64,000 nucleotides of DNA from Bugula neritina (lineage: Eukaryota > Bryozoa > Gymnolaemata > Cheilostomatida > Bugulidae), in contig OZ037768.1 in NCBI GenBank assembly GCA_964035545.1, positions 24,392,819-24,456,818 of the forward strand, read 5' to 3'. The position numbers and the translations under genes were made by a program. Below the pieces are notes generated by a model that had not been told where the DNA came from, made no database searches, and saw only the letters and a program-made list of their open reading frames with translations. Below, piece after piece: positions 165-50,800 of the stretch (the stretch's first letter is position 1; each line of letters begins with the position of its first letter).

Positions 165-815
165 TGTTGTAGCATCACTGTAAGTTAGTATAGTATTATT
201 GTAAGTTGGTGTAGTATCACTGTGAGTTAGTTTAGTGTCACTATAAGTTGGTGTAGTGTCACTGTGAGTTGGTGTAGTGTCACTGTGAGTTAGTGTAGTA
301 TCACTGTAAGTTAGTATAGTATTATTGTAAGTTGGTGTAGTATCACTGTAAGTTGGTGTAGTATCACTGTGAGTTGGTATAGCATCACTATAAGTTGGTA
401 TAGCATCACTGTAAGTTAGTTTAGTATCACTATAAGTTAGTATAGTGTCACTATAAGTTGGTATAGTATCACTGTGAGTTAGTGTAGTAACACTGTAAGT
501 TAGTTTAGTATCACTGTGAGTTAGTGTAGTATCACTATAAGTTGGTGTAGTGTCACTGTGAGTTAGTTTAGTATCACTGTTAGTTAGTGTAGTGTCACTG
601 TGAGTTGGTGTAGTATCACTGTAAGTTAGTATAGTATCACTGTAAGTTAGTGTAGTAACACTGTAAGTTGGTGTAGTAACACTGTAAGTTGGTGTATTAA
701 CACTGTAACTTGGCATAGTATCAGTGTAAGTTGGTGTGCTGGTACTGTGAGTTAGTCTAGTGTTACCATAAGTTAGTATATTACCACTGTGAGTTGGTGT
801 AGTATCAATGCAAAT
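165..815. repeat. Minisatellite, about 21-base unit, intronic
   Basis: About 30 variable copies of a unit like gtagtatcactgtaagttgg. It lies in what would be intron 1 of the duplicated zinc-finger gene, and the same array occurs at 10870-11325. Because 21 is divisible by three and the units rarely contain stops, it gives a long minus-strand frame of YSDTTPT-type heptads that I regard as non-coding. Confidence 0.9.
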
Positions 816-10800: not shown

Positions 10801-11607
10801 CCACGTACTTTTAGACTTGTAAAAGTTGTAATCATAAACTGAGAATTCCCTTGGGTCTTCTAATTGCCAATATTTGTTGTAAGTTGATGTAGCATCACTG
10901 TAAGTTAGTGTAGCATCACTGTAAGTTGGTGCAGCATCATTGTAAGTTGGTATATTACTGTAAGTGGGTGTAGTATCACTGTAAGTTGGTATAGTATCAC
11001 TATAAGTTGGTATATTACTGTAAGTTGGTGTAGTATCACTATAAGTTAGTGTAGTATCACTATAAGATGATGTAGTATCACTGTAAGTTGGTGTAGTATC
11101 ACTATAAGTTGGTGTAGTATTACTATAAGTTAGTATATCACTGTAAGTGGGTGTAGTATCACTATAAGTTGGTGTAGTATTACTGTAAGTTGGTGTAGTA
11201 CTTTTGTAAGTTGGTGTATCACTGTAAGTTGGTGTAGTGTCACTATAAGTTGGTGTAGTATTACTGTAAGTTGGTGTAGTACTTTTGTAAGTTGGTGTAT
11301 CACTGTAAGTTGGTGTAGTGTCAATGTAAATAGTTCTAGTCTTCTCATTTCGGTGAATTCTTAAATCAAGAGCTTGTAAATTGTCTTCCCATTCTGATTG
11401 ATGTTCTCGAGCTAGAAAACTGGGTTGGCAGCCATTATCTACTTCTACAGAAAAGTTTTGGTCTTCATATAGAAATATTGAAACCAAGGTGACACTGCTT
11501 GCTAAGAGTAGTTTAAATATATTCATATTAGATATACCTTGAAAATACTTGACCTTGACTGATAAATCTAATGGTAAATCGTATCCATACCATTGCTGAC
11601 TCATCAT
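4805..11607 (-). CDS. C2H2 zinc-finger transcription factor with N-terminal CtBP-binding motif (5 exons, 213 aa)
   Basis: Exons on the minus strand are 11607-11538, 10338-10268, 7359-7183, 6239-6105 and 4993-4805. They total 642 bases and stay in frame across phases 1, 0, 0, 0. The N-terminus has PLDLSVK at about residues 11-17, the classic CtBP co-repressor motif. Residues about 47-100 are low-complexity with three AKGEGQ-like repeats. Four C2H2 fingers follow (about 102-124, 131-153, 160-182, 188-210), each C-x2-C-x12-H-x3-H. Fingers 3 and 4 are joined by a canonical TGEKP linker. Finger 1 is split by intron 3 between YTCQ and VCSK, which strongly supports the join. The likely role is a nuclear, sequence-specific DNA-binding repressor. 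Exon 3 starts at a tandem CAGCAG acceptor, so a one-Gln isoform difference is possible. I do not recognise an orthologue. Confidence 0.85.
5024..5366. mobile_element. Possible solo LTR-like insertion in zinc-finger intron 4
   Basis: A compositionally distinct 340-base block with a TATA-like ggatataagtgg and later an aatcttaataca poly(A)-like stretch. It is flanked by a possible 5-base duplication ATGCA (5019-5023 and 5367-5371). The ends are not the usual TG...CA and no second LTR or polyprotein is present, so this is only a suggestion. Confidence 0.25.
6680..6772. repeat. Tandem repeat agatatactat, about 11-base unit, intronic
   Basis: About seven copies in intron 3 of the zinc-finger gene. 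The unit is partly palindromic (atatactatagatat). Confidence 0.75.
8143..8153. promoter_or_regulatory. κB-like palindrome, third copy, intronic
   Basis: GGGGAATCCCC in intron 2 of the zinc-finger gene. A few neighbouring bases (accaca, caagg/aagg) recall the other two sites, so it could belong to a small repeat family. Confidence 0.2.
9200..9850. repeat. Minisatellite agtataacatagtat, 15-base unit, intronic
   Basis: About 43 copies of agtataacatagtat with occasional 10-base short units, in intron 2 of the zinc-finger gene. Minus-strand frames through it are repeat artefacts. Confidence 0.9.
10870..11325. repeat. Minisatellite, about 21-base unit, intron 1 of the zinc-finger gene
   Basis: About 22 copies of gtagtatcactgtaagttgg variants, including 14-base short units. 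A minus-strand frame runs unbroken from the ATG at 11607 through exon 1, the whole array and on to 10756. Intron retention would therefore give a 283-codon product with a hydrophobic stretch and YSDTTPT repeats. The duplicate copy does not keep this frame open, so I take it as chance. Confidence 0.9.
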
Positions 11608-26230: not shown

Positions 26231-29200
26231 ATGATTCGTGTCACCAAGTACCTGCTGCTACTTGTCCTACTAGCTAGTCATGTCACCGCGGCTTGCATGA
26301 CAGCTGATAGCAGTATAGAAGCTTCATTCCTGCTGAATGACACTTGCTACTGGGTGGTCTCGCCTAGCGCTTTCACTTCCTGGCAGTTTGCTAGGGAAAG
26401 CTGTGCTCAACATGGTGGAGATTTAGCTGTTGTGTGGTCAGAAGAGTTGAACACAAACATTACCGCCCATCTGACAAGGTATGCCCCTAGCACCTGTCAT
26501 TGCATGCCAAGTTAAATTATTTGAAATAAATTTTAGTGCTGCAATAAAATCATAAAAGCTAGGATTTGGAAGCTTTTTCAATAAGGCTTTGGTTCTGTTA
26601 TAATGTTTTTCAGTAATGAAGTGCCTACTTTTATTAGAAATAATATTTTGTTTAAGATAATTGATGAGTCTAAGTTGAGTAGCTCTTGGCTTGTGGAAGC
26701 ATAGCATGTGCGACAGGAAAATATGCTTTCATCTATTCTAAACGCACATTTTATTCTAAATATTTCTTAAAAAGCAGCAGCAGAAGAAATTTTGAATAGT
26801 GTTCTATAACTTTTGGTTTATATCTAATTTTGAAATAATCTTTCAATAATTTTCTCAATCTCTCTCACTTCTGCAGGTCTGTGTACATTGGGCTGTATAA
26901 GGATAATGACTACACTTGGCTTTGGCTGGATGGCTCCAAATATAATTATGACAAAGAGAAGATTTCTGGAAAGACCCATGTGACCAATCACGTGATAATG
27001 ACACCAGAGGGCAAGTGGGCTATGGTACCTCTGGATCTTGAAAGTCCAAATGAATATGGCAGCCTGTGTGCTATTGGTGAGAAAATTTTGTATTTTAATC
27101 GTAAGAGTAAATTACACAATTATGCATCTGGTTAATTGTCGATTGCATTTTGTCTAGTTCCATTTAGTCTAGATTTAGAGAGTATAAACAGGCCACACCC
27201 TCAAATTATTTATACTAAAGAAATAACATGTGTTTACATTGATATCTCTTTCTAGCCAAGCAGGTAGTAGAGCTACCATTAGTAACTTTATGTTACTCTG
27301 CATGTTCACTGCTTTGTCAAATATTAAGTAAGTTTCCTGTCAGAGTTTAATGTTTTCATAAACAGAATACAAGCTCTTGCAATGTCCAATGCTGGAGGAG
27401 GTAGAGAATGCTGTCATTACATCTGGGTCACTGCCGGCATATATAGGTCACTCTGTGGTCTACGAGTGTTCAGATCAGCACCAAACTAACCCCTTTGGAG
27501 AGACGGTGCAGAGACTAGACTGCATTGCTGGCCCCAGATGGAGCACAAACCTACAAAACTGTTTCCGTAAGCCAATCCAATACACCTTATAACGAGGAGT
27601 TTACTCTTGCTTCTGGGGTCAAGTTGCAACTAAGAGGCTCTGCATTAACTGAATCTTTTACTTTTAGTTTGATTTTGAAAAGCAGATTATCTTGTTTACC
27701 AAAATATAGAGACAAGTACAAGTTTAATTTAACTTGAATACCTCTACCCACATATTTAGGTGTACCCTCATACCTAACCTCATATCTACCCTCATACCTA
27801 ACCTCATATATATACCCTCATGTCTACCCCCATGTCTACCCTCATATCTACCCACATGTCTACCTCCATGTCTACCCACATGTCTACCCTCATGTCTACC
27901 CTCATGTCTACCCTCATGTCTGCCCACATGTCTACCTCCATGTCTACCCACATGTCTACCCTCATGTTTAGGTGTACCCACGTGTCCACAGCCCCCACCT
28001 CTGCTCCCTCAGGCCATAGTGACAGTATCTGACACCCACAATCTGTCCACCGCCACCTACACCTGTGTGGAGGGCTGGGGTCTGTCTAATGGGGAAGCGG
28101 ACGTTGCGATCACCTGCTCAGCTGACTCGGGGTGGAACAGCATGGCCATAGGCAGTCTCCACTGTGCAGGTAAGAAAGGAGGTGCAGGTAAGAAAGGAGG
28201 TGCAGGTAAGAAAGGGGGTGCAGGTAAGAAAGGAGGTGCAGGTAAGAAAGGGGGTGCAGGTAAGAAAGGAGGTGCAGGTAGGAAAGGAGGTGCAGGTAAG
28301 AAAGAAGGTGCAGGTAAGACTGCGTTGTGTAAGCTAAAGAGATCCGAAGACAAGTTTATTGGCATTTTATGTGCTCATTCACCAACATTATAATATTGTA
28401 ATATAAATATTCATATATATATACTTATCATATTGATGTTATAAGGTAAAAAATATATTCTTACAATTATATATATTTGTGTAGAGTAGATTGAGTTTGT
28501 TTTACATATTGTAACAATATGGCAATAGTATTCAATGAATAGCATACTTGCAGCTAACTGATCACCAGGGTATGATAACTCTTAATTGGTATGAATAATT
28601 GAATGCTCACTGTGTGACCTATTTCCCTCAGGGGTTGCTACCATGACAACGGAGTGTAATATTACACAGTTTAGGCTGCGTATAACACAGGGCTGTTACA
28701 GTTATACAATATTCAATATTCTAAAGCAATGAAATAAATGCTCCATGCAGTATAACTATCATGCATATTGAATTGGAAAACTTCAATATAATTATTCTGT
28801 AATCTAAGTTTATATTAATAATTAGATTTGAAAACAACCCAATATTATTACAACTATTAGGTATAAGTATAAGCTTCTATAAGAATAGTATAGTCAGCTT
28901 GTATAGAGAGAGAACTGTATAGTTAACTTGTATATAGACATGGATTGTTAACTGCCAGCCTCATTCCTTCAAAGCTATGATTACAGAGCTACTCTGCGAA
29001 GAAGATCTGGAGGTAAACTTGAACCAGTTTCTCAGTACAGAAGGACGGCAGGTTGGGGTGGTGAGGAGTTACTGGTGTAACCACGGTTTCCAGACGTCTG
29101 CTGGCAAACATGTGACAGACGTAACGTGTCTAAAACCTGGGGCAGGAGGGAAGCCCTATTGGAGCACCCCCAGACTTCCTTTGTGTGAATGTGAGATAAA

Positions 29201-32200
29201 TTCTGCTATAGGGAAATTGTTTGAGTAAAGCTTTGCTAAGCGGCTTTCTAGAACACAAATTCTGAATGTCATAAAAACACACCAACAGAAGTAATTGCAG
29301 AACAAATATTTCTAGGAAGTGTTGATAATGCATTTATTTAAAGGTTTTGCTTTTTCTAAAATGTCGGTTACAGCTAATTAGATGCTAGAAATGTAAAGTG
29401 AATTTGACTTCTTTGTTTCAGCTATGAGATGTGCCACTGTCTTGGTACCCAGAGCGTTTCTTAGAGGTTATGACGATGAGACGGTTTCCCACCAATTGGT
29501 TGGTCAGAGCCTTCTGTATCAGTGTAATGGGACCAATAGATTCCCTGGGAACAAGCAGCAGTACCAGACAACGTGTAGAGAGAGTGGCCAGTATGACAGC
29601 ATCCCTCCCCTTTCAGGTTGCACAGGTGAGCAAGGTGTCACAGGTGAGCAAGGTGTCACAGGTGAGCAAGGTGTCTCAGGTGAGCAAGGTGTCTCAGGTG
29701 AGCAAGGTGTCACAGGTGAGCAAGGTGTCACAGGTGAGCAAGGTGTCTCAGGTGAGCAAGGTGTCTCAGGTGAGCAAGGTGTCACAGGTGAGCAAGATTT
29801 CACAGGTGAGCAAGGTGTCTCAGGTGAGCAAGGTGTCACAGGTGAGCAAAGTGTCACAGGTGAGCAAGGTGTCACAGGTGAGCAAGGTGTCACGGGTGAG
29901 CAAGGTGTCACGGGTGAGCAAAGTGTCACAGGTGAGCAAAGTGTCACGGGTGAGCAAGGTGTCACGGGTGAGCAAAGTGTCACAGGTGAGCAAGGTGTCA
30001 CGGGTGAGCAAGGTGTTACAGGTGAGCAAGGTGTCACGGGTGAGCAAGGTGTCACGGGTGAGCAATGTGTCACAGGTGTTTTGGAAGAGAAGTCAACCAT
30101 GTAACAGACCTTCTGACCATAAAGAAATCATAATATCTTAAGATTCTTAATTTATATTTGAGATTCAGATGGAAATTCTCAGGGGAACTGATTCTGCTAT
30201 ATATATCCCTCATTTAGAATAGAGGCTTTTAGCAATGTCTTCCAACTCTACCTCCTCTATAAGAGCAGTTGGGATATATCGACTAATAGCTGCTAACTTT
30301 TCTTTCAGTCTGAGACAAATTTCCTTCCTTCCTTCCTTAGAAGAATAATTTGCGGTTATTTGCTGAAAACAAGTTCTTAGTATTATTATTGAACGGAACT
30401 GCTTAATGCTTCAGCTAAAGATGTAGGAGCAGAAATAGAAAAATTGAGAAATAGATCTGTCTTATAGATTAGAAAGAAGTTGTGTTCTCAAGAGAATTTT
30501 AACCCGCACCCTAAACCAATTAGACAAACTAAATAATTTAGACTATAGTACAGATTTCTCCACAACTCACATAAATGAAACTGAACAAACTACCATAACT
30601 ATTTTATAGTTTTGCAGTTTATGCAGTATACTGTGTAGACATTGTGCGATTGAAACTATCAACAAGCTTTGATAGTTTTTAAAATACTTCTTCTCATTCT
30701 GATTTGCAACATGTTGCAGAGGGTGAATGTCCATCTGGGTGGGAGGCGGTGCTGGGCAGCTGCTACTTTAGATCTGACCACACCAAGGCGGGACTGAGGT
30801 ATACCTCGGCAATGGCGTCTTGCAGAGAGAAACTCTCTTACTTGGCAACGGTTAATGATGAAGACGAGATGAATCTTTACTTCTCAAAATTGTTAGTATT
30901 AACTGGTTATACTCTGATACTAAATGTTAGATGTATGTTTGATTGTTAACATGGTGTTGTTTGGAATCCCGAAGCCCCTGTAGCGTAATTGGTTAGCGCG
31001 CCTGCTTGCAAGCCGGGGGAAATTATTTTACGCATGGAAAAGACAAAACCTTAATCTTTCTTAGCATTTTTCTGCTCACAAGCAGTTTCTATTTTATATC
31101 CCCGAAAATTTAACTTTGGTGTCGTCTTGTTGATGAAAAGTAGTTTTCTCCTGTCAGGTATGACTTGTACGGAGCTGACTATTGGATAGGGTATCACCTC
31201 ACAGGAAGTGGATGGGCGTGGCATGACAACTCCACTACAAACTACACCAACTTTGGCAGAAACTACCCAGAGCTTTACGATTGCGCCAGAAACGCTATCA
31301 ACGGCATATGGAAGGACTGGGAGTGCGACAAGCTGCTGTCGTACGTCTGCGAGAAACCAGCTGGTAGGTCAGCGGAGTGTGTGACTCACTGCATAGGGTG
31401 ACTCACGTTATGGCATGACTCACAGTGTACTGTACAACTTCTACTAACAGCTACTATTCTCTTGACAAATAATATTATCATTACATTTACACTCACTATT
31501 TAGTAGCAATCTTTTGTTCCGTTATAAGCATGCTGCAGGAAATTTTACTCCATTAACTTGTGAATGTTTCAGTGTGCGGGTCACCACCAGGAGTGGGCAA
31601 CTCCTTTCTAAAGGGATACAGTGCAGGGGCTAGCGTGGAGACGGGCACCACAGCGGAATATGAATGTTTCCATGGTTATGCATTGCCAGACGGCAGCAAA
31701 CAGGTCATATCTACGTGTATGCCTGGAGGTTATTGGTCGGCTGTTTCCAGCTGTCAGAGTGAGTATATACTATACTGTACCCTATATAGTAGCAATACTA
31801 TATTACTATACTGTACCCTATGCAGTAGTAATACTATATTACTATACTGTACCCTATGTAGTAGTAATACTATATTACTATACTGTACCCTATGTAGTAG
31901 TAATACTATATTACTATACTGTACCTTATGTAGTAGTAATACTATATTACTATACTGTACCCTATGTAGTAGTAATACTATATTACTATACTGCACCCTA
32001 TGTAGTAGTAATACTATATTACTATACGGTACCCTATGTAGTAGTAATACTATATTACTATACGGTACCCTATGTAGTAGTAATACTATATTACTATACT
32101 GTACCCTATGTAGTAGTAATACTATATTACTATACGGTACCCTATGTAGTAGTAATACTATATTACTATACTGTACCCTATGTAGTAGTAATACTATATT

Positions 32201-35200
32201 ACTATACGGTACCCTATGTAGTAGTAATACTATATTACTATACGGTACCCTATGTAGTAGTAATACTATATTACTATACTGTACCCTATGTAGTAGTAAT
32301 ACTATATTACTATACGGTACCCTATGTAGTAGTAATACTATATTACTATACGGTACCCTATGTAGTAGTAATACTATATTACTATACGGTACCCTATGTA
32401 GTAGTAATACTATATTACTATACTGTACCCTATGTAGTAGTAATACTATATTACTATACGGTACCCTATGTAGTAGTAATACTATATTACTATACGGTAC
32501 CCTATGTAGTAGTAATACTATATTACTATACTGTACCCTATGTAGTAGTAATACTATATTACTATACTGTACTCTATGTAGTAGTAATACTATATTACTA
32601 TACTGTACCCTATATAGTAGTAATACTATATTACTATACTGTACCCTATATAGTAGTAATACTATATTACTATACTGTACCCTATGTAGTAGTAATACTA
32701 TATTACTATACTGTACCCTATGCAGTAGTAATACTATATTACTATACTGTACCCTATGTAGTAGTAATACTATATTACTATACTGTACCCTATGTAGTAG
32801 TAATACTATATTACTATACTGTACCCTATGCAGTAGTAATACTATATTACTATACGGTACCCTATGTAGTAGTAATACTATATTACTATACTGTATCCTA
32901 TGTAGTAGTAATACTATATTACTATACTGTACCCTATGTAGTAGTAATACTATATTACTATACTGTACCCTATGTAGTAGTAATACTATATTACTATACT
33001 GTACTCTATGTAGTAGTAATACTATATTACTATACTGTACCCTATATAGTAGTAATACTATATTACTATACTGTACCCTATGTAGTAGTAATACTATATT
33101 ACTATACTGTACTCTATGTAGTAGTAATACTATATTACTATACTGTACCCTATGTAGTAGTAATACTATATTACTATACGGTACCCTATGTAGTAGTAAT
33201 ACTATATTACTATACGGTACCCTATGTAGTAGTAATACTATATTACTATACTGTATCACACATTTCATAGTCATCACGTGCACGTCAGTCAACGCTGCCG
33301 AGATGGTAGTCCCCAACACGCATGTCTCCAATTCAGCCTCCAACATTAACAGCCGAGCCACCTACACGTGTAACGACGGTTATGTGTTCCCCAGTGGACA
33401 GAAGAAAATGACTATACAGTGCATGGAGGATGGGGAATGGGACGCCATCCCTCCGCCGTGTCAAGGTAACACTAGATGAGGTCCCTAGTCTATATATCAA
33501 TATCTAAATGCTAGACAAGGAATGCTGAAGTTTCTGTAACAACTTATAAATTTATTGACTTTAAATATATGATTCTCAAAGATGAAACATTTAATTTTTC
33601 CTTTAAAATATCAATACCAACAGAGCAATTTTTGGCGTTGATATTAAAATAAGAACAAAATCTGTAGGCTTATAGAATTTTGACGAATAAAAAGAATCTT
33701 CTACTGTAACTCACTTAGTGCAGGATATCTCCTCAAGACATTCGCTCATATCATAACACGTTTAGTCATCATTTGTGGTTCTTGTGTAAAAGAAGGAAGG
33801 AATCCCCTTTCCTTCTCAGCACAGTGTATTTCTCAGCACACGTTAGTTGATAGAACAGAGCATCAACTTGATGGGTAGTCATGTGATCAAAGTCTCCTTT
33901 GAGTAGTGCTTGAACTCACTTGACCTTGAACTCACTTGACCTTGAACTCAAACATCCTGTAAAGATACAATATTATATCATTATTCACAAGTAGAAACAG
34001 CGTTGATATCATTTCTATATACTTCTATATACTTCACTATACTTCTAGATACTTCTATATACTTCTATATACTTCTATATACGTGACTGAGAGAGTTGTT
34101 GTGAGCCGCTGTGGTCTAAGAATTAGACGCATGAAGCTCTGATATACTTGCAGCCCTAAGATGCGATACACTTGGAATACCAAATGCCACAGCCGCATTC
34201 AACTACACAGGATACGGACAGAGCGACGTATTCACCTGTGAAGATGGCCACCGGTTCCCAGATGGGAGAAAGCAGAGAGTCTTGTATTGTGATGCTAACA
34301 GGAGATGGAATCCACCTGTATACTGTCAAGGTATAAACACCTGTATACTGTCAAGGTATAAACACCTGTACACTGTCAAGGTATAAACACCTGTATACTG
34401 TCAAGGTATAAACACCTGTATACTGTCAAGGTATAAACACCTGTATACTGTCAAGGTATAAACACCTGTATACTGTCAAGGTATAAACACCTGCATACTG
34501 TCAAGGTATAAACACCTGTATACTGTCAAGGTATAAACACCTGCATACTGTCAAGGTATAAACACCTGTATACTGTCAAGGTATAAACACCTGTATACTG
34601 TCAAGGTATAAACACCTGTATATTGTCAAGGTATAAACACCCGTATACTGTCAAGGTATAAACACCTGTATACTGTCAAGATATAAACACCTGTATACTG
34701 TCAAGGTATAAACACCTGTATACTGTCAAGGTATAAACACCTGTATACTGTCAAGGTATAAACACCTGTATACTGTCAAGGTATAAACACCTGTATACTG
34801 TCAAGGTATAAACACCTGTATATTGTCAAGGTATAAACACCCGTATACTGTCAAGGTATAAACACCTGTACACTGTCAAGGTATAAACACCTGTATACTG
34901 TCAAGGTATAAACACCTGTATACTGTCAAGGTATAAACACCTGTATATTGTCAAGGTATAAACACCCGTATACTGTCAAGGTATAAACACCTGTACACTG
35001 TCAAGGTATAAACACCTGTATACTGTCAAGGTATAAACACCTGTATACTGTCAAGGTATAAACACCTGTATATTATCAAGGTATAAACACCCGTATACTG
35101 TCAAGGTATAAACACCTGTACACTGTCAAGGTATAAACACCTGTATACTGTCAAGGTATAAGGTATAAACACTTTCCCTTCTAGCCGTGATGTGTCCACA

Positions 35201-38056
35201 ATACTATCAGGATAATGCCGGAGCTACTGAAGGAGGTGCTAAGTACCTGGATGTTATAACCGTCAGATGTAACGTCGGGTACAGACTGTCTGGTGGGGAG
35301 GAGGTGGAGAAGAAGATGACGTGCTCTGAGAATGGAACGTGGCTGGGAGATCAAAGGGAGTGTACAGGTAGGCTATATATAGTCACAAGAGAGAGTGTAC
35401 AGGTAGGTTATATAGTCACAAGAGAGAGTGTACAGGTATGTTATATAGTCACAAGAGAGAGTGTACAGGTAGGCTATATAGTCACAAGAGAGAGTGTACA
35501 GGTAGGTTATATAGTCACAAGAGAGAGTGTACAGGTAGGCTATATAGTCACAAGAGAGAGTGTACAGGTAGGTTATATAGTCACAAGAGAGAGTGTACAG
35601 GTAGGCTATATAGTCACAAGAGAGAGTGTACAGGTAGGCTATATAGTCACAAGAGAGAGTGTACAGGTAGGCTATATAGTCACAAGAGAGAGTGTACAGG
35701 TAGGCTATATAGTCACAAGAGAGAGTGTGTAGGTAGGCTATATAGTCACAAGAGAGAGTGTACAGGTAGGCTATATAGTCACAAGAGGGAGTGTACAGGT
35801 AGGTTATATAGTCACAAGAGAGAGTGTACAGGTAGGCTATATAGTCACAAGAGGGAGTGTACAGGTAGGTTATATAGTCACAAGAGGGAGTGTACAGGTA
35901 GGCTATACAGTCACAAGAGAGAGTGTGTAGGTAGGCTATATAGTCACAAGAGGGAGTGTACAGGTAGGTTATATAGTCACAAGAGAGAGCGTACAGGTAG
36001 GCTATACAGTCACAAGAGGGAGTGTACAGGTAGGTTATATAGTCACAAGAGAGAGTGTACAGGTAGGTTATATAGTCACAAGAGAGAGTGTGTAGGTAGG
36101 CTATATACAGTCACAAGAGGGAGTGTACAGGTAAGCTATACAGTCACAAGAGAGAGCGTACAGGTAGGCTATGCTGTAGTCACCTGTAGTGATACATGTC
36201 TCTTCAGCACAGGATCAATAACTCTCTATAAACAATCAATGATAAAGATTCACTTTGACCTTTCTTGTCGACTGGGTAGATTTTACTTCCACACTTGAAA
36301 TGTTCTACGTGGCAAGTGAGTTACTAGGCTAAAAGTGAAGGTCATTGCAATAGGTCAAGTTGATACATTGTTCATCACACACCTAAAGGTGAAGTGTATC
36401 ATATATCACACAGCTAGACACTGCCCGGGTGCCTCACCTCCGAATGTAACCAGAGCGTACAGGAACTCATTTGCCACGCTGGGAGGAAGCAGAGTAAAGT
36501 ACGGGTGTTGGCCCAGCTACATGTTCCTTGACGGTACAACAACCAGGACTGCGTGGTGTAGTGCGGATACGCTGGAGTGGACCGGTGTCCCAGAGGGGTG
36601 TGTAGGTGAGGGCCGTTGTTATCTGGTATGATAAAATAGAAATCAGTCTAAACTATACCTCATAGTGTTCTACAGTAACAACAGACTGCACGTATTTTCT
36701 TAAGAATTTAGAATAATGAGTGAGTAGATAAAAGTTAAGAAACAGTGCTAGGTTCAGGGTCAAGGAATGCCTAGTATAGAGAGAGCACAATACAGGGTAC
36801 ATTGTATTACGTGTTATGTATTATCTTACAGCTCACCCTTACTATTTCAGACTACGAGACATACCTCAAATCTCAACTGTTTGTCTACCCGAATGAATTC
36901 ATTGTGAGTTTGACATTTTATGGCAACAGTGTAATCGCTGCGCTTTTCCTTCTGCTGGCACTCGGCCAAATTGTCAGTTTCGCTTTGGACTACCCGGTTG
37001 TAGGAGCTTTGAGTAGGTAGGTTCCCCTTTACCTTCAATGGCATATACTCTGTAGCATACAGTAGCTGAGGACAGGGTTTGGGGCAGTGGAAGCTTGTCT
37101 GTCTGTATAACACAATAAAGTATGTTGAATATGATATCAGGTTATTAATCAAGTCATGTCTGATAATAAATGATCTTGGAGGTGAAAATAGTGATTGTAA
37201 ATGAAGAAAAATAGTTAGGCTTCATGCAACAAGCTCTGTGATTGGTCAAAAAGTGCCATTCAAACTGACTTACTTTAGTTTCTTCAGAGCCCATCCTTAA
37301 CACGTCAGCATCAAATCCACTGACTCCGATCAACACAGTGTTTAGTGCAGTTGAACACATGTTCTACAATTAGAAGGCAAACTGTTCAAATGAGTGCCAT
37401 TAAAGTGTTCACCTCACCATGTGTTACTTTCTTGCAGCTCTGAGAATAGGACCAGCGGGCTTGTTGATCTCAGCCGTGACCCCGCAGCTGTAGAACTTTC
37501 AGAGAAGGGTAAGTATATTGAATAGAACTTTCAGAGAAGGGTAAGTATATTGAATAGAACTTTCAGGGAAGTATGGTAAATATGATGTCTAGACTTACTT
37601 ACAGCTGTGGGTATTTACAGAGTAAGTGTATATATTTACTTACAGCTTTAACTATTCAAAGAATGAAGTGTAGATCTATATTTACAGCTCCTAGCACTTT
37701 CCTGTCTGAAAGCCAACCTGTGACAGACTCACAGCAAGCCTTCCCTTCTCAAGAACAAGGTCAAGGAGAAAGTGGAGAGTTGGGAGGACATACAGACAGA
37801 GTGTCTGAAGAAGTGACTCCTACTTCTACTCCAAATACCTCAGTGAGTGTTGTACTTTCTAGTCACCTGTAGGTACGTTACCTGTAGACACATTTCCTGT
37901 AGATACGTTACCCGCAGATACATTACTTGTAGATTATGCCAATTTCGTGATATTAGATGTGACTAAATTCAACAATGTAAACAAGTCATTAGTTTGATTT
38001 GTATGATATGACAGAAAAAGAGATTGGAGGAGGAAGTAGATGAGGTAGAGCTCTAA
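26231..38056 (+). CDS. Type I membrane receptor with 2 C-type lectin and 9 Sushi/CCP domains (17 exons, 1,003 aa)
   Basis: Exons: 26231-26478, 26877-27076, 27366-27566, 27972-28169, 28975-29190, 29422-29625, 30720-30891, 31158-31363, 31573-31758, 33271-33465, 34154-34330, 35185-35367, 36414-36605, 36851-37016, 37438-37508, 37688-37842, 38015-38056. A signal peptide (KYLLLLVLLASHVTA) is followed by CTLD1 (exons 1-2), four CCPs (exons 3-6), CTLD2 (exons 7-8) and five CCPs (exons 9-13). Next come a membrane span (GNSVIAALFLLLALGQIV) and an acidic, Gln/Ser/Thr-rich tail ending VDEVEL. Each CCP is one phase-1 exon, the usual shuffling module. CTLD2 keeps WIGY, the WND-like region and four Cys. Neither CTLD has an EPN or QPD sugar-binding triplet. 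The likely role is extracellular recognition or adhesion. Poly(A) signal AATAAA at 38553-38558. Confidence 0.9.
27755..27975. repeat. Minisatellite ctacccacatgt/ctaccctcatgt, 12-base unit, ending on a 3' splice site
   Basis: About 17 copies ending directly at the acceptor of Sushi exon 4 (27972). The acceptor string tttaggtgtaccc occurs at both edges of the array (about 27757 and 27967). The 3' splice site was therefore copied with the array. Confidence 0.9.
28154..28320. repeat. Splice-donor minisatellite gtgcaggtaagaaaggag, 18-base unit
   Basis: Nine copies starting at the end of Sushi exon 4 (28169). Each unit repeats the exon end gcag and the donor gtaag, giving about nine potential 5' splice sites in frame (18 = 6 codons). 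Use of a later donor would add GKKGGA-type repeats. Confidence 0.92.
29612..30078. repeat. Splice-donor minisatellite gtgtcacaggtgagcaag, 18-base unit
   Basis: About 25 copies starting at the end of Sushi exon 6 (29625). Each has cacag followed by gtgagc, a copy of the genuine donor. The array stays open in frame and would add GVTGEQ hexapeptides if later donors were used. Confidence 0.92.
30078..30719. other. Intron 6 remainder, non-coding
   Basis: AT-rich intron between the donor array and CTLD2. I see no further features. Confidence 0.5.
30974..31018 (+). mobile_element. Truncated tRNA-like fragment (5' half), probably a SINE remnant
   Basis: gcccctgtagcgtaattgg and the following gttagcgcgcctgcttgcaag resemble the acceptor, D and anticodon arms of a tRNA. 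The T arm and B box are missing, so it is not a functional tRNA gene. It lies in the intron that splits CTLD2. Confidence 0.5.
31760..33255. repeat. Minisatellite, 36-base unit, filling the intron after Sushi exon 9
   Basis: About 41 copies of a unit starting actatactgtaccctatgt, beginning within about 10 bases of the donor at 31759 and ending about 15 bases before the next acceptor (33271). It makes up practically the whole 1.5 kb intron. Thirty-six is a multiple of three, so long frames exist on both strands (up to 639 codons when fused to the flanking exons). I read them as artefacts. Confidence 0.93.
33466..34153. other. Intron between Sushi exons 10 and 11
   Basis: Non-coding, with a small actttctatat repeat at about 34015-34080. 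A tRNA/SINE-head-like scrap (gagccgctgtggtctaag at about 34104) resembles the head of the SINE at 22888. Confidence 0.4.
34307..35165. repeat. Splice-donor minisatellite, 25-base unit (exon end plus intron start)
   Basis: About 34 copies of cacctgtatactgtcaag followed by gtataaa. The first copy is the real end of Sushi exon 11 (donor at 34331), so 18 exon bases and 7 intron bases form the unit. It fills nearly the entire intron to 35184. Twenty-five is not a multiple of three, so use of a later donor would usually shift the frame. Confidence 0.95.
35356..36165. repeat. Splice-donor minisatellite, 33-base unit
   Basis: About 24 copies of a unit reading gagtgtacag, then gtaggctatatagtcacaag. 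The first lies across the end of Sushi exon 12 (35367) and its donor. Thirty-three bases keep frame, so read-through gives 11-residue repeats with no early stop. Confidence 0.95.
37487..37577. repeat. Triplicated exon end and splice donor, 32-base unit
   Basis: The last bases of exon 15 and its donor (gaactttcagagaagg, gtaagtatattgaata) are repeated about 2.5 times. It looks like an early stage of the same process that made the larger arrays. Confidence 0.85.
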
Positions 38057-38829: not shown

Positions 38830-41800
38830 TCAGCTGAAGAAAGGTTTCAGAGAGGGTTTAGTTATCCAATCAGTGGATCTGATGAGTTGATACACGGAGA
38901 TGAAAAGGAGGGGAAATCGGGACAGGAAGTAGACGTGTGATTGGCCGAGTTGTGCTCTTAGATGAATAGATCTGAAACAATAGACATGGAGGGTTTGGAA
39001 GAGGTGGTGTGAGAGAGTATATATACTATATAGACTAAGAGGTGGTGTGAGAGAGTATATATACTATATAGACTAAGAGGTGGAGTGAGAGAGTATATAT
39101 ACTATATAGACTAAGAGGTGGAGTGAGAGAGTATATATACTATATAGACTAAGAGGTGGAGTGAGAGAGTATATATACTATATAGACTAAGAGGTGGAGT
39201 GAGAGAGTATATACTATATAGACTAAGAGGTGGAGTGAGAGAGTATATATACTATATAGACTAAGAGGTGGTGTGAGAGAGTATATATACTATATAGACT
39301 AAGAGGTGGAGTGAGAGAGTATATATACTATATAGACTAAGAGGTGGAGTGAGAGAGTATATATACTATATAGACTAAGAGGTGGAGTGAGAGAGTATAT
39401 ATACTATATAGACTAAGAGGTGGAGTGAGAGAGTATATATACTATATAGACTCAGAGGTGGTGTGAGAGAGTATATATACTATATAACTACATAGACTCA
39501 TAGTTATAATAAATAATAATGCTCACATTTTGCTGTAGTTTTGATTAGTCGTGTGCATAAACATCAGCAAATCACAGATGCTTTGGGAAACCTTCGGTTC
39601 AACTTTCATATCATCCAACAGTCTGCCGTCCACTTGCCTCGTCTGTATAATATATAATGATATAGTATATGAATGTGGACTAGTAATACTATATACTTAA
39701 CTGAGTGGTGGTACTGTGGACTAGTAACACTATATACTTAACTGGGTGATAATACTGTGGAATAGTAATACTATATACTTAACTGAGTGGTAATACTGTG
39801 GACTAGTAATACTATATACTTAACTGGGTGGTAGTACTGTGGACTAGTAATACTATATACTTAACTGAGTGGTAGTACTGTGGACTAGTAATACTATATA
39901 CTTAACTGAGTGGTAGTACTGTGGACTAGTAATACTATATACTTAACTGAGTGGTAGTACTGTGGACTAGTAATACTATATACTTAACTGAGTGGTAGTA
40001 CTGTGGACTAGTAATACTATATACTTAACTGAGTGGTAGTACTGTGGACTGGTAATACTATATACTTAACTGAGTGGTAGTACTGTGGACTGGTAATGAT
40101 ATATAATAAACTAGAGGGAAGCTCCACCTACTCACCCAATCTCTAACAGTCGGGTGTAGAATGATGGCATTGAGTTGTTCGGTCAGCTGTGTACTTTTCT
40201 GGCTAAATGAGTTTCCTACCTCCAAGAGCTCGTTACCAACGGCAACCAGCATCTCAAACTTCCTTTTCTCAGCCCAGAAGTAGGGATGCCTGAAGACAGA
40301 TATATAGAGTAAGCATACGGAGGGAGGGGGTGTCAAACCCACCCGTACTCGAACACATCAGAATACCAACTATCAGCCAGCTGGAGACAGGAAGTCAAAC
40401 TAAGAATCACGTCTAACCTGAGAACTGAGTTAATATCTGCCCGGTCCCGGGGTTCCTTAGCTATCATAGACAGAATGAGATGCTTAGCCTCAGGGCAAAC
40501 TCCCTTCAACTTGGGGCAGTTGCTGGCCATGTTGGTCTCAATCTCATAGATGCTGTCGCCAAACACGTGCTGCCCTCCAGTTAGGATGTAGTAGACGAGC
40601 AGACCGGCCACGTATATCTCAGAGTGCAGTGTGTAGTGTAGCATCACCATTTGACCCCCAACAGACTTACAACTGCTCAGACATTCCCGGGGTCTCCAGC
40701 AATTGTCTCCCCCTTTTCCAGAGTAAAACATGGTGAGTCCTACAGAGTACAGCTGAGGTGTGAATACTGAGAAATACACAGAGAGACAAGATAGGGAGGA
40801 GAGATAAGATAGGGAGGAAAGAGAGAGTGTGACATTGAAAGTGCCTACCGTCGGGGGCGACGTGGGAGAGCCCGTAGTCGCTCAGCTTCAGCTTGCCTTG
40901 AGAATCGACTAAGATATTGGTAGGTCTGAGATTTCTGTGTAACATAAGACACCGGCAATGCAACACCTGTAATACACAGAGTAGAGTGTGTAATACGCAG
41001 AGTAGAGTGTGTAATACGCAGAGTAGAGTGTGTAATACGCAGAGTAGTGTGTGTAATACGCAGAGGAGCGTGTGTAATACGCAAAGGAGAGTGTGTAATA
41101 CGCAGAGGAGTGTGTGTAATACGCAAAGGAGAGTGTGTAATACGCAGAGGAGAGTGTGTAATACGCAGAGGAGAATGTAAGGGATCAGTTTGAGTTTACT
41201 GCTACAAACTATTACCTGCAGCCCTTTCAACAGTTGGCAAACCAGTCTATAGAGTGTGGCAAAGTCCAGAGGGGATTTAGATGGAGCTCTCTGCAGAAGT
41301 GTGTTGATGTACCCGTCCAGTGTGTACTCGCATAGTTCTTGGGCTATGTAGCCATAGTGCTCATCTTCTGCTATTTCCTGTAACAATTCAACTACACCTT
41401 CAGACTACTAGCAGATGTTACTCCTACTAGCAGACGTACTCCCACAAGCAGACGCACTCCTACTAGCAGACGTACTCCTACTAGCAGACGTACTCCTACT
41501 AGCAGATGTTACTCCTACAAGCAGACGTTACTCCTACTAGCAAACAGTACTCCCACAAGCAGACGTACTCCTACTAGCAGACGTACTCCTACTAGCAGAC
41601 GTACTCCTACTAGCAGACGTACTCCTACTAGCAGACACACTCCCACAAGCAGACGTACTCCTACTAGCAGACGTACTCCTACTAGCAGACGTACTCCTAC
41701 TAGCAGACGTACTCCTACTAGCAGACGTACTCCTACTAGCAGACACACTCCCACAAGCAGACGTACTCCTACTAGCAGACGTACTTCTACTAGCAGACGT

Positions 41801-44800
41801 ACTCCTACTAGTAGATGTTACTCCTACTAGCAGACGTTACTCCTACTAGCAGACGTACTCCTACTAGCAGACGTACTCCTACTAGCAGACGTTACTCCTA
41901 CTAGCAGACGTACTCCTACTAGTGTCCCAACCAAAGTGTAGAAGCTCACCAGGTATTTAATCAGATGCTCATGGTGGTACTTTGGCTGCAAAAGTTTCTG
42001 CAGATTATCCTTGATAGGCGTGTACATGGGCAACGGGATTCTTTTAACAACTGCGGCACTGTTACTGACCCTGCCCATTAGCATGAGGATGTCTACGCCG
42101 TACATAGGGCTTGTCCCCAGTATATACGTGTTGTCCATACACAGGACTATATTCCCCTTAATCAGCAGCTTCTCTGCGGGACTAGACTGGAACTTCCAGA
42201 ACAGCATCTCGTATCTCTTAGCTGCCGCTAACGGCAGCATCGACACACACTCAGCCTCATTGTTGTTGTTGACACTCTTTACACCAGGGTCACCCGGCGC
42301 TGTCAGGGAAGACTGTTGGTGCTGGAGAGGCTGCTGACGCTGCTGATAGTGCAGTTTACCTGCCAGCTGGTACTGTGGGTGTTTGCCTTGATAGGACTGA
42401 GGCAAGCCTGTCTGCTGCACCATAGACTGAGCTCCGTGCTGCATTGGTTGCTGGTGGTAGGGGCGTCGCGGTAACGGCGAGTATTGGTAGGTCCTTTGGG
42501 ACTGTACAGACTGTGAAGGGGTTGCCATTGTCAACTGATATGCTGAAATACACAACTAGTGTGATTAGCTAGAACAAGCATGTGATTGGTCAGGTGTGTA
42601 GAAAGTAAAGTGATCAACTACGAGCAAAACTAGGTTATACATAAACTAATACGTCTGCAGAGCTACCTTGTTGCTGGTTGTTGATTGGCTGATTCCTCAA
42701 CATCACACCATATGGTATATAGTAGCCAGAAGAAAGGGAGGAGGAGCTACCATGACTATGGGCCACGCCCCCTGTGTTCATAGGCCTGCTACAAGCCAAT
42801 CAGAGAACTAAAATACTGTGTATGGAAAAGGGGATATTAGTATTTACGTAGACAAGTCAGGTGACTCTTTTATTCTCAATACTTTTGGGACATAATTTGT
42901 CGTGTTTTCCTCAACTATCTATTCACAAAACTGTCCAAACACTATCCCCCCCCCCCACCATAGTGGTTAGCATATTACTCAGAGGCTATTCCTAGAAGTC
43001 AAAGAAGATAATACACAACTTGTGTCATTGAGTCATTCAATATGAGAGAGACAGGGAGATGGAGCTCACCTCTGAGGAGGGGGCATTCTGAAACAGTTCT
43101 GGTACGAATAGAGCGAGTTCTTCATGTCGCTGCTTTTCACTTGAGCGAAAGTGCCAGTTGAGTTCACAGTGGTCAAGGTTCCCAGGCTAGGAGTAGTGTC
43201 AGTTCCATTCACACTATTTGAGTTGACTAGGGTGTTAGTAGATCCACCCTTCTGCTTGATAGAGAGAGATCTCTGGCTGGCCTGTTGCTCGTACAACTTC
43301 TACAGCAGAAGACAACTCCGTGTTTCTCTCTTGAGACAGAATTATAATTACTATGAAGGCTGGTTTATTAGAATTTTCACACAAGAACACAACTCCGATT
43401 TATCTATGATGTACTACAAGGTAAAGGCAAAACATTAATGGTAGAGCTAGAACACAGCAGCATGTTTAAACATACTGTCACTACACTGACACTATACTGT
43501 CACTATACTGTCACTATACTGACACCATACTGACACCATACTGTCACTACACTGTCACCATACTGACACCATACTGACACTATACTGACACTACACTGTC
43601 ACTACACTGACACTATACTGACACTACACTGTCACTACACTGACACTATACTGACACCATACTGACACTATACTGACACTATACTGACACTATACTGACA
43701 CTATACTGACACCATACGGACACCATACTGACACTATACTGACACTACATTGACACTATACGGACACTACCTTCAGGTGTCTGCCGAGCTCAGAAGTCAC
43801 ACTCAATGATGACTCATGTATTTTTGAAACTTGAGCTTCGTCTTCCGATGAGTCATGTGACAGGAAACCGATGTCATCCAGAGGTGACGGGGTGATCTCA
43901 GGAACACGAATATCCGTGAGAAAGTTGGTGTAACGAGGATCTGGGATCTTTGATGCAGGAAGCTGTAAAGTAGAGCACCCAGTTTACACTATAGGCCAAC
44001 CTGTACAAGAGAAGGGTGTCACAAGACGGAGACATATAAACAAGGAGTACCTCATCTAGTGCTAGCTCTACTTGGAAATATTCTACTGGACCAGTGTCTA
44101 CCACAGAAGTAGACATGCTCTGTGCGGGGGGTCTGATACACGCCCCACTAAACAGACTGGTACTCTCATGTAGGATGTTTGGTACCACAGGTCTACTGTT
44201 CAGCACTCCAGGTGAACCATCTGGAACCTTCTCTAAACTTTCATCAACAGTTTTCTCTACAAACAATCATCAATTACTATATGTATATTTCCATATAAAC
44301 ACGTAAATAGTACTTTTATTACTAGTAAAGACACTCAGTGAATAAATACTGTCTTAAAAGGATAGAGAAACACCCTCACTGCAGACGTACCTTTTTCATC
44401 GTCTGCTATCAGTCGACTTATGCTTGCATCAGACACCAAGTCTGACATTTGACCTTCACCTTCATATTCAGATACAACATCTTCCACCGCAGCCTTGACT
44501 GGAGTTTTCTCCACATTGCAGTTGATTTTACGAGCAACTTCCGGCAGGAGAAATTGACTTAGAGTGAAACACTCTTTATCCTGAGGTAAGAAAGGAGCCA
44601 TGATTGAAGGCAGAACATAATGAACGATTTGAACTTTTGATTAAATAATACAAAGCTTTTGAGTTGCTGTATTTTCTAGAACAATCCTCAGTATTATTTC
44701 AATCAAGCATTTGTTTGCACATTCAATTCATGAGCAGATAATTTCACTAGTTCTACTGATTCGGCCAAGTAGCTCCTGAACAGCCTCAAGAATCTGTAGG

Positions 44801-47800: not shown

Positions 47801-50800
47801 AGAAAGCAAGATAAAATGGTGTAAAGCAGACAAGACAAAACTAAAAATATTAAACCAAAAATTTTTAAAGTTAACAATTTAAAAAGAAATCACAAACAAA
47901 ATAGGGTATGAAATGCATGAAATAAAGTGGGCAGGGTTATAATTCCCAGCATTGCTGAGCAGCCAATAATTGAAACTTTTCAAAAGGTCTGAACTCACAT
48001 GCAATTGCAGATTCTTTTTGTCAAATATTTGAACAAAAGAGACGAGCTTGTTCCAGTTCTCGCGAAGCCAAGAGTGGGCTTTAGCGTGAGTGCAGGCGAA
48101 TATGAGAGGAAGTAGGAGGGAGATGATAGTGGCGGATTGTCTATGCTTGTTTGTTGACATGTAGAACTCCAGCGACTTTAGGATTATCTCCAGACACTAG
48201 AAACAGGAAATAGATATTCGTAACGATCAGAGAAGAGTATTTCCTGGAGAGTAATTAGACCTGATGAGATGACCTCTACATAAAGGAACCAAAAGAAGAC
48301 TCAACGCCACCTAAAAGTCTGATTCTCAGCAGAAACCTGAAGCACAGAATGTCCCTCAAAACACTGACTAGTTAAATAACAGTCTAGTCAGACTAGCTGG
48401 TCAACTATCAAGTGGCTGCACTTGAAAACTTTACGTGGCGTAAAGAAGTAAGTTACCTCTTTCTGGATGAACTCGACAATGACCTCAACTTCTAGTGACG
48501 TCATGTTATGCATCGTCATGGCGATAAGCTGAGCTGCTCTCTGAATGAACTCGTCATGCATGATGTAACGGCATATGGCGCTAATCATAGACACGGCGAA
48601 TCCGCGCTGCTGCAGCTGCCTGAATGATAGAGAAAGTCGACCTGAACAGTAAACTAGAGACCTATATATTAGTTAGTGTAGTTTTGTATGATTTAGTGTT
48701 CTGTCTAAACAGTAACTGAAGTTTAAGAGTCGCGTGCATACTTCCCCCTACTAACAACACTTGATGTGCAAGAGGCTAGCAAATCTCTCTACTTACTTGC
48801 GGAAGGAATCGTGCCACAGGAGTTTGTGAAAGACAGGAAATAGAGCTGTGAGGTAATAGTCGATATCCGTACTGAATCCGGCAAAGGAGGTCATGTTGAG
48901 CAGGTTCAGTTTTCCCTACAAGAGAAGACAATTTCTTGTGACTACATAATACTCACTATAACTATGTAGTACTCACTGTAACTATGTAGTACTCACTGTA
49001 ACTATGTAGTACTCACTGTAACTATGTAGTACTCACTGTAACTATGTAGTACTCACTATAACTATGTAGTACTCACTATAACTACGTAGTACTCACTGTA
49101 ACTATGTAGTACTCACTGTAACTATGTAGTACTCACTATAACTATGTAGTACTCACTATAACTATGTAGTACTCACTGTAACTATGTAGTACTCACTGTG
49201 ACCATGCAATACTCACTGTTACTATGTAGAGAAAGCACTAGTAAGTACTTACAGCAATATAAAGCTGCTTGTCAGATAAACTAATTTTCTTGGCAATCAG
49301 TTCAAGGACGTCTCCCTTCTTCTCTAATATAGCGACACACAAAGGGGTCTCCCCGGACTACAAGTCAAGGTCATACATTGTGACGAGGTATGAAATCTCA
49401 GCGAATATGTAACTCAGTGAACTGAGCAAACTAATGGTGTGTCTATGTACAAAGATTAACCCACTCTTAGTCCTTTCTGGTACTAAGACTTGTTGTGACT
49501 GTTAAAACGCTTTTAATGTCTTATTTCTTGTAAAATAGTCTACAAGCTTAGAGGTCTAGTCTAAATGAATCACAGTGACAGATGATTTCTCATCACCGGT
49601 ACAAGAGCACTCAGTTCTAATGCATACAGCCATATAGGTTGAGACATATTATGTCTGTCTGTGTGTCTCACCTTGTTTTCTGTGATGACCTTGACATTTG
49701 ACTGGAGCAGACGTTTCACGGACTTCTTGTCGTTAGCTCGAGTAGCTATAGCCAATGAGGTGTCACCGTGCTCACTCACCATGTTCTTATTGGCTCCTCC
49801 ACTCAGCAGCATGTTGATACACGACTCCCAGCTTTTCTCTGCTGCCAAAAGCAGCGCCGAGTACCCTTTCTACACAGACACAGGAGAAACCCTTTCTACA
49901 CAGACATAGGAGAAACCCTTTCTACACAAACACAGGAGAAACCCTTTATACACAGACATAGGAGAAACCCTTTCTACACAGACATAGGAGAAACTCTTTT
50001 GTTACATAAGATGGCAAGGAATTACTATTAAAACATTAAGTGGCTAAAAATTTAAATAAAATCAATTTATTAAGATTTGTTTTATAAATTAGACAGTTTT
50101 GTGAGTTGCAACACACTCTTTGTTAGTTACAACTTACAAGACAAACTCTGAAAGAATTAATATATTAAGGTTACTAGTATTATAAGCTAACTACAGTATA
50201 TTACATCCTTCTACACAGCAGGACGAATTGACGTCATCTTGACATACCCGATTTCTGTGATCGATGTCAAACAGCTTCCTGTGCTGCCAAAGGAGGTTCA
50301 CGGGAACCGGGGATCCTGTCATCACAGCAACCATGAAAGCATTATTACCTTCCTAGAAACAAGAGTTATTACCTCCTAGAAACAAGTTTTTTTACAGTAG
50401 GGCAGGTGTTTAATAATAACTGAAGATGACCAAATCATTAAAATCTACTATTCAAGGCTTATGATACCTGATTTTCAATACAGAGATTAGCTTTGTGAGA
50501 GATGAGCAGGTTCATAGTCGACGCATACTTCCCTCTCGTCGCCAGAATCAACGGGGTGTTTCCATCCTAAAAACAGCAACAATCATATATCAGTTTATAT
50601 TAACTGTAGTTCACTACTCATAGGTCAGAAAATAACTTCAATATTCTGCACAGCAATGTTTCTTGCAAATAGCAGTTGATAACATTATATAAACTTGAGA
50701 AAACTTTTATTCACATAACATTTTTTTAAACTATTGCAAATTAATCTTTACATTGAAAATAGATACTGATAATCATAGTATACTAATGACTAATCAGTAC

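What the first reader, a model, noticed from the sequence alone, without database searches (positions are those of the whole stretch)
28154..37577. Tandem arrays that multiply 5' splice sites in one gene
In the lectin/Sushi gene, four intron starts (28.17, 29.63, 34.33 and 35.37 kb) carry minisatellites of 18-33-base units. A fifth (37.51 kb) has an early 2.5-copy version. Each unit consists of the last exon bases plus the genuine donor and first intron bases, so each junction offers about 3-35 equivalent donors. A sixth intron (31.76 kb) is filled by an array beginning within 10 bases of its donor. Repeated independent seeding at donors, with different unit sequences, suggests a mechanism tied to splice junctions, or selection tolerating repeats only where the splice signal is kept. 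I know of minisatellites near exons, but not of this gene-wide pattern.
Basis: partly seen in the sequence, partly recalled or inferred. Interest (0 to 1): 0.88.

Follow-up and report, generated by a model that had tools for sequence, protein, structure and literature searches.

The report
Bryozoan minisatellites repeating splice donor sites
In one gene of the moss animal Bugula neritina, short DNA repeats have grown across exon ends so that the signal that starts an intron is copied many times over; such repeats were known from amphioxus and human genes, and here they look more common than chance would allow.

Summary
In a 16-exon C-type-lectin/Sushi gene, five arrays straddle the 5' splice site, each unit holding 5-18 exon bases plus the donor; a sixth starts 5 bases into its intron. 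Using the first donor everywhere gives one open 990-codon frame. The host is the bryozoan Bugula neritina; the window lies near the end of chromosome 4, in a minisatellite-rich zone.

The kind is known: amphioxus 'mirages' and the human IFI6 donor minisatellite. New are the host, five in one gene, and a genome-wide count: close triplets of the donor octamer CAGGTAAG come to 6.3% of its occurrences, against 0.2-0.4% for a dinucleotide-matched octamer and two reversed controls, and 0.09% for an acceptor-like one; a further matched octamer (154 triplets, not normalised) is less clear-cut. An array in a sample taken by position starts exactly on a donor of an ECH1-like gene. But outside the lectin gene, sampled introns show no significant clustering at donors. 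Most likely: tandem duplications in a repeat-prone zone, harmless while the first donor stays whole, plus a donor-specific excess of unknown cause. No RNA evidence was available.

The parts
26231..37842 (+). C-type lectin / Sushi gene, 16 modelled exons, 990 codons (3' end not modelled; a hydrophobic, probably membrane-spanning stretch at 36851-37016 was judged by eye)
   Evidence: Pfam Sushi 105.8 bits, Lectin_C 76.2 bits
28164..28319 (+). donor-straddling array, 18-bp unit, 6 exon bases; last exon base 28169
29621..30078 (+). donor-straddling array, 18-bp unit, 5 exon bases; last exon base 29625
31764..33255 (+). 36-bp array filling its intron from base +6; donor itself not repeated
34313..35161 (+). 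donor-straddling array, 25-bp unit, 18 exon bases; last exon base 34330; of donor copies 1-6 tested only the first keeps the frame open
35358..36172 (+). donor-straddling array, 33-bp unit, 10 exon bases; last exon base 35367
37491..37571 (+). short donor-straddling array, 32-bp unit, 2.5 copies, 18 exon bases; last exon base 37508
27763..27967 (+). 12-bp array with the acceptor sequence TTTAG|GTGTACCC at both its borders (acceptor-type mirage; inner copies lack the AG)
49863..49999 (-). acceptor-straddling array in an ankyrin-repeat gene, 26-bp unit with pyrimidine tract, AG and 7 exon bases
   Evidence: Ank 31.8 bits
43472..43769 (-). 11-bp array that starts at intron base +2 of a predicted intron, no exon bases

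Best explanation
These are 'mirages': minisatellites born as small tandem duplications that span an exon-intron border. Shown: the repeat unit contains the last 5-18 exon bases, the donor and at least 7 intron bases; the first donor is whole in all five; using it gives an open frame; the region is a minisatellite-rich chromosome end. Inferred: the first (exon-proximal) donor is the one used, so the mRNA is unchanged and further copies are harmless intron DNA that can grow by slippage or unequal exchange; acceptor copies are rarer because upstream AGs tend to be used or must be lost. On top of this tolerance the genome shows an excess of arrays that carry the donor octamer, which suggests that donors are either more often duplicated or more often kept.
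For: Exon-bounded placement and open frame with first donors. For the 25-bp array donor copies 2-6 give frameshifts or a stop. Intron part of the five units 12, 13, 7, 23, 14 bases. GT intact in 89 of 90 copies. Minisatellite cover 32.8% in 10 samples near chromosome ends, 5.0% in 10 others, 19.0% in the window. CAGGTAAG triplets 422 for 6651 occurrences; reversed 10 for 2311; dinucleotide-matched CAAGTAGG 9 for 4516, its reverse 6 for 2160; acceptor-like TTTTCAGG 8 for 9319, its reverse 0 for 4548. 18 separate arrays among the first 100 of 422 listed places; 12 of 18 lie within 3.5 Mb of an end of C1 or C2, about 20% of that sequence (p 2.5e-5, cut-off chosen after seeing the list). Unit lengths, read by me from the spacing, are multiples of 3 in 5 of 18; some arrays mix lengths. 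Position-chosen locus L046 (C3:10.0 Mb): a 30-bp array starts with GTGAGT right after an exon that matches dienoyl-CoA isomerase ECH1 over 52 residues (E 1.5e-9). L054: a predicted donor straddled by 9 exon bases. L002 (fetched because it resembles the window array): 13 CAGGTAAG copies after a 65-codon open frame with only a weak ZIP match (14.8 bits, below cut-off). Precedents.
Against: No RNA evidence: which donor is used is inferred. In 111 predicted introns of held sequence, 9 of 32 arrays start inside the exon or within 10 bases of the donor against 3.3 expected (p 0.002), but 4 of 24 against 2.2 (p 0.16) without this gene. Array edges outside the gene abut coding-like sequence equally on both sides, donor 19 and acceptor 20 of 229 each. 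The neighbouring Pkinase-domain gene has arrays that start 23-37 bases after its donors (two, two read). The further control CAGTAAGG gave 154 triplets, reverse 11; 4 of its 7 arrays with printed letters run on as GGT and could be donors, but its single count was not taken. L049 holds 32 CAGGTGAG copies with no convincing exon before them. In L046 the exon bases themselves are not repeated.
Confidence: 0.8

Rival explanations
1. Tolerance alone: minisatellites arise evenly in this repeat-rich region and only those that keep a good first donor survive at exon edges; this gene is the luckiest one in the window.
For: Dense minisatellites near chromosome ends; no significant donor clustering outside the gene in held sequence; no donor-acceptor difference at array edges; first donor whole in all five arrays.
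Against: Under tolerance alone donors should carry arrays no more often than neutral sites, yet triplets of the donor octamer are 15 times more frequent per occurrence than those of its reverse and 32 times more than those of a dinucleotide-matched octamer. In-gene excess 5 against 0.82, post hoc.
Confidence: 0.25
2. Some arrays are coding: translation runs through the array and the donor of the last copy is used, giving Gly-rich peptide repeats.
For: The two 18-bp arrays are open in the exon's frame and read GKKGGA and GEQGVT repeats.
Against: The 25-bp array shifts frame or meets a stop in copies 2-6 and the 33-bp array meets stops; 32 bp is not a multiple of 3. The second Gly codon of the GEQGVT unit is changed 6 times in 25 copies whereas the donor GGT is unchanged in all 25. 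The other Sushi exons of the gene end at the same place, one residue and one base after the last Cys. Only 5 of 18 donor-octamer units elsewhere are multiples of 3.
Confidence: 0.1
3. Functional donor multiplication: the copies are selected as a device to make protein variants or to strengthen splicing, as in human IFI6 where downstream copies are used.
For: IFI6 uses two downstream repeat units as donors. GT positions changed 1 of 180 against 77 of 2031 elsewhere (my sum).
Against: Donor positions -2..+6 are changed about as often (20 of 720) as the rest (58 of 1491), copies within an array are not independent, and downstream donors of the 25-bp array (copies 2-6 tested) would break the protein.
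Confidence: 0.1
4. Introns newly made by tandem duplication of an exon piece holding AG|GT (Rogers-type intron gain).
For: Repeat units hold AG|GT, and such gains are described.
Against: By eye, the acceptors of these five introns are unrelated to the repeat units, and 12 of the 15 introns are in phase 1, the usual position between Sushi domains (the usual position is recalled).
Confidence: 0.03

Closest known systems
Amphioxus 'mirages' (Adh3, globin, troponin C and PGBD5 genes)
   Same: Minisatellite-like tandem repeats spanning exon-intron borders, AG/GT repeated, units 10-72 bp in Adh3; both 5' and 3' borders; said not to disturb splicing (passages read; Canestro 2002 itself not held)
   Different: Bryozoan host; five donor arrays in one gene, up to 34 copies; genome-wide excess measured for one donor octamer; instability and splicing not tested here
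Human IFI6 (6-16, G1P3) minisatellite (Turri 1995, not held; cited in PMC4526556)
   Same: Repeat units carry splice donors; multiple donors at one junction
   Different: There two downstream units are used as donors; here use is untested
Cryptococcus CNN00420 repeat expansion (PMC2395259)
   Same: Tandem repeats that include exon ends and splice sites, polymorphic copy number
   Different: There the unit holds a whole intron and expansion adds introns
Minisatellite enrichment near chromosome ends (recalled as a general phenomenon)
   Same: Arrays concentrate near chromosome ends
   Different: That pattern by itself does not place arrays on splice donors

Membership tests
mirage (exon-intron border minisatellite) | tandem unit spans an exon-intron border and repeats the splice signal | tested here: met
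   five donor arrays, one clear acceptor array
mirage (exon-intron border minisatellite) | unit length in the minisatellite range (10-72 bp in Adh3) | tested here: met
   18, 18, 25, 33, 32 and 26 bp
mirage (exon-intron border minisatellite) | normal splicing in spite of the copies | not testable with these tools
   no RNA data; the first-donor model is open
mirage (exon-intron border minisatellite) | length instability between alleles or somatically | not testable with these tools
   one haplotype held; an alternate haplotype assembly exists
mirage (exon-intron border minisatellite) | several genes of the genome affected | tested here: inconclusive
   L054:3873-3959 and window 49863-49999 in other predicted genes; L046 array starts on an ECH1-like donor without repeating exon bases; genome-wide octamer excess with flanks unseen
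IFI6-type donor minisatellite | downstream copies used as donors | not testable with these tools
   frame analysis of copies 2-6 speaks against it for the 25-bp array

The most novel reading that the evidence does not exclude
Splice donors are hot spots of minisatellite birth in this genome: some property of donors (their slippage-prone sequence, or transcription- or U1-linked DNA damage or repair) makes tandem duplications start there tens of times more often than at neutral sites, so introns grow from their 5' edge.
Probability: 0.35. Interest if true: 0.8.

Novelty: new member of a known kind. Interest (0 to 1): 0.52.

Why it matters
If the donor-specific excess is confirmed with annotation, mirages stop being an amphioxus curiosity and become a general, countable route by which introns lengthen and alternative donors appear. 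Bugula has a chromosome-scale assembly, an Ensembl annotation built primarily from transcript alignments, and a second haplotype, so whether donors are mutational hot spots or only safe places for repeats can be tested directly.

Tried and rejected
Identifying the species by protein search failed: none of 6019 candidates scored for the 990-aa protein. A search with chromosome lengths gave Bugula neritina; the eight contig lengths I saw (C5 was not shown) fit its table. The published total is 216.00 Mb in 320 scaffolds, the held copy 215.85 Mb in 295 contigs.

An acceptor at 41404 for the kinase gene was first read by eye and would have made 41405-41922 an acceptor array; the spliced frame puts the acceptor at 41377, so that array is interior. 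An exon start at 28013 was replaced by 27972 for the same reason.

First gene-finder settings chained everything into one gene and were dropped; the introns are predictions from the third setting. That set missed the 37491 array (its short exon was filtered out) and the L046 array. Loci L002-L006 were left out of it because they were fetched by similarity to the window, as were 11 of 30 Sushi loci that overlap others; two kept pairs still overlap by about 1 kb, so a few introns may count twice.

Unit PWM test: 4 of 100 held arrays carry a donor of 7 bits or more against 0.47 expected, 5 against 1.4 at 6 bits, acceptors 0 against 0.32 at 6 bits; the lectin gene was not removed. The edge test gave no donor-acceptor difference outside the gene. 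A replicate with CAGGTGAG did not complete.

Papers: PMC3087553, PMC3902484, PMC4526556, PMC2395259, PMC2812944 and PMC11480708 read in passages; PMC10884593 one of three parts. Turri 1995 and Canestro 2002 (one search used a wrong DOI) are not held. Searches for similar reports, a genome-wide survey or bryozoan cases found no such survey among the listed papers (one search had no hits; two listed 15 of 82 and 15 of 22).

Full report
What was checked. The window is G000:C4:24392819-24456818.

The gene. A codon-usage gene finder trained on Sushi exons and exons of this window, corrected by eye, gives 16 exons from 26231 to 37842 with GT-AG borders and one open frame of 990 codons when the first donor of every array is taken. 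Pfam finds Sushi (105.8 bits) and Lectin_C (76.2 bits). 12 of the 15 introns are in phase 1, as is usual between Sushi domains (recalled). Nothing similar was found in the protein collection.

The arrays. At 28164, 29621, 34313, 35358 and 37491 the repeat starts 6, 5, 18, 10 and 18 bases inside the exon, and the unit reaches 12, 13, 7, 23 and 14 bases into the intron. The first donor is therefore whole in each. The array at 31764 starts at intron base +6. The unit sequences are unrelated by eye. GT is intact in 89 of 90 copies of four of the arrays, but the wider donor (-2 to +6) changes about as often (20 of 720) as the rest (58 of 1491), so there is no clear sign that the inner donors are under selection. 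For the 25-bp array, donor copies 2 to 6 were tested and give frameshifts or a stop; the two 18-bp arrays stay open throughout; the 33-bp array meets stops.

Against chance. Nine arrays lie in 15 introns of the gene; five straddle a donor, 0.82 expected if each seed unit were placed at random in its own intron (p 8e-5) and 0.39 if pooled over all introns (p 1e-5). The gene was chosen for this pattern, so these values are post hoc. In 111 predicted introns of the held sequence (144 kb around and including the window, 100 kb of samples, 19 Sushi loci), 32 arrays lie in introns: 9 start inside the exon or within 10 bases of the donor against 3.3 expected (p 0.002), and 4 end that close to the acceptor against 3.3. 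Without this gene it is 4 of 24 against 2.2 (p 0.16), not significant. A cruder test, coding-like open flanks at array edges, shows no difference outside the gene: donor side 19 of 229, acceptor side 20 of 229 at 6 bits.

Other donors in held sequence. L046 is a 5-kb sample taken by position at C3:10.0 Mb. Its 30-bp array starts with GTGAGT directly after an open frame of 53 codons that matches dienoyl-CoA isomerase ECH1 (residues 2-53, E 1.5e-9); the exon bases are not repeated. L054:3873-3959 straddles a predicted donor by 9 exon bases. L002, fetched by similarity to the window's array, has 13 CAGGTAAG copies after a 65-codon open frame with a weak ZIP-transporter match (14.8 bits, below cut-off). 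L049 has 32 CAGGTGAG copies with no convincing exon in front.

Genome-wide. The whole genome could be scanned for patterns. Three CAGGTAAG octamers with gaps of 8-38 bases: 422 matches; the same pattern read backwards: 10. Single octamers: 6651 and 2311. The dinucleotide-matched CAAGTAGG: 9 triplets, in 3 arrays, for 4516 singles; its reverse 6 for 2160. The acceptor-like TTTTCAGG: 8 triplets, in 3 arrays, for 9319 singles; its reverse 0 for 4548. Triplets per occurrence are thus 6.3% for the donor octamer, 0.2-0.4% in three controls and 0.09% for the acceptor-like word. The first 100 of the 422 places fall into 18 separate arrays, which would make about 76 in all (extrapolation). On C1 and C2 there are 18 listed donor arrays (the list ends at C2:31.6 Mb) against 1 of CAAGTAGG (binomial p 7e-4 given the single counts). 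Printed units differ between arrays, so this is not one dispersed family. A further matched octamer, CAGTAAGG, gave 154 triplets, its reverse 11; 4 of its 7 arrays with printed letters continue as GGT, so it may itself collect donors, and it was not normalised. On C1 and C2 it has 3 arrays against 18. It weakens the contrast.

Where arrays live. TRF cover (period 8 or more) is 32.8% in ten 5-kb samples about 350 kb from chromosome ends, 19.0% in the window, 5.0% in ten samples 3 Mb or more from the ends and 2.8% in the 30 Sushi loci, overlaps included. Of the 18 donor arrays 12 lie within 3.5 Mb of an end, a cut-off chosen afterwards.

Acceptors. Two arrays of the window involve acceptors. At 49863-49999 (minus strand, ankyrin-repeat gene) a 26-bp unit holds pyrimidine tract, AG and the first 7 exon bases. 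At 27763-27967 the acceptor TTTAG|GTGTACCC stands at both borders of the array while inner copies lack the AG. So donors are not the only junctions hit.

Explanation. Small tandem duplications in a repeat-prone chromosome end sometimes span an exon edge. Across a donor they do no harm as long as the first donor stays whole, because splicing there leaves the mRNA as it was; the rest is intron and free to grow. This is the anatomy of amphioxus mirages and of the IFI6 minisatellite. Tolerance predicts no more arrays at donors than at neutral sites; the octamer counts show more, so a donor-specific input or retention is likely, of unknown cause. Use of the first donor, and the position of the listed genome arrays at true exon ends, are inferred.

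Verdict. Real, well placed, of a known kind, in a branch of animals for which my searches found no report, and with a measured genome-wide excess of one donor octamer. The open point of interest is whether donors are hot spots of repeat birth.

Noticed in passing
window and L037-L056: Minisatellite cover rises from about 5% in samples 3 Mb or more from chromosome ends to about 33% near the ends in Bugula.
   Followed up: partly
window 38999-41922 (minus): Introns of a Pkinase-domain gene (IRE1/RNase L-like by recalled resemblance only) are largely filled by arrays that start 23-37 bases after the donors; an ankyrin exon lies upstream on the same strand at 49.7 kb.
   Followed up: partly
window 168-807 and 10878-11329 (minus): Two paralogous stretches each run into a 21-bp array that stays open as TTPTYSD-like repeats.
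   Followed up: no
window 30974-31019: tRNA-like fragment (resembling a 5' half, by eye) inside an intron of the lectin gene; neither ARAGORN nor Rfam reports a tRNA.
   Followed up: partly
window 28164-28319 and 29621-30078: Both 18-bp donor arrays read in the exon frame give Gly at every third residue (GKKGGA, GEQGVT), but the second Gly of the latter is changed in 6 of 25 copies.
   Followed up: partly
L046:2714-3063: A 30-bp array begins exactly on the donor of an ECH1-like exon.
   Followed up: yes
L049:3494-3988 (minus): 15-bp array with 32 copies of CAGGTGAG; no convincing exon in front of it.
   Followed up: partly
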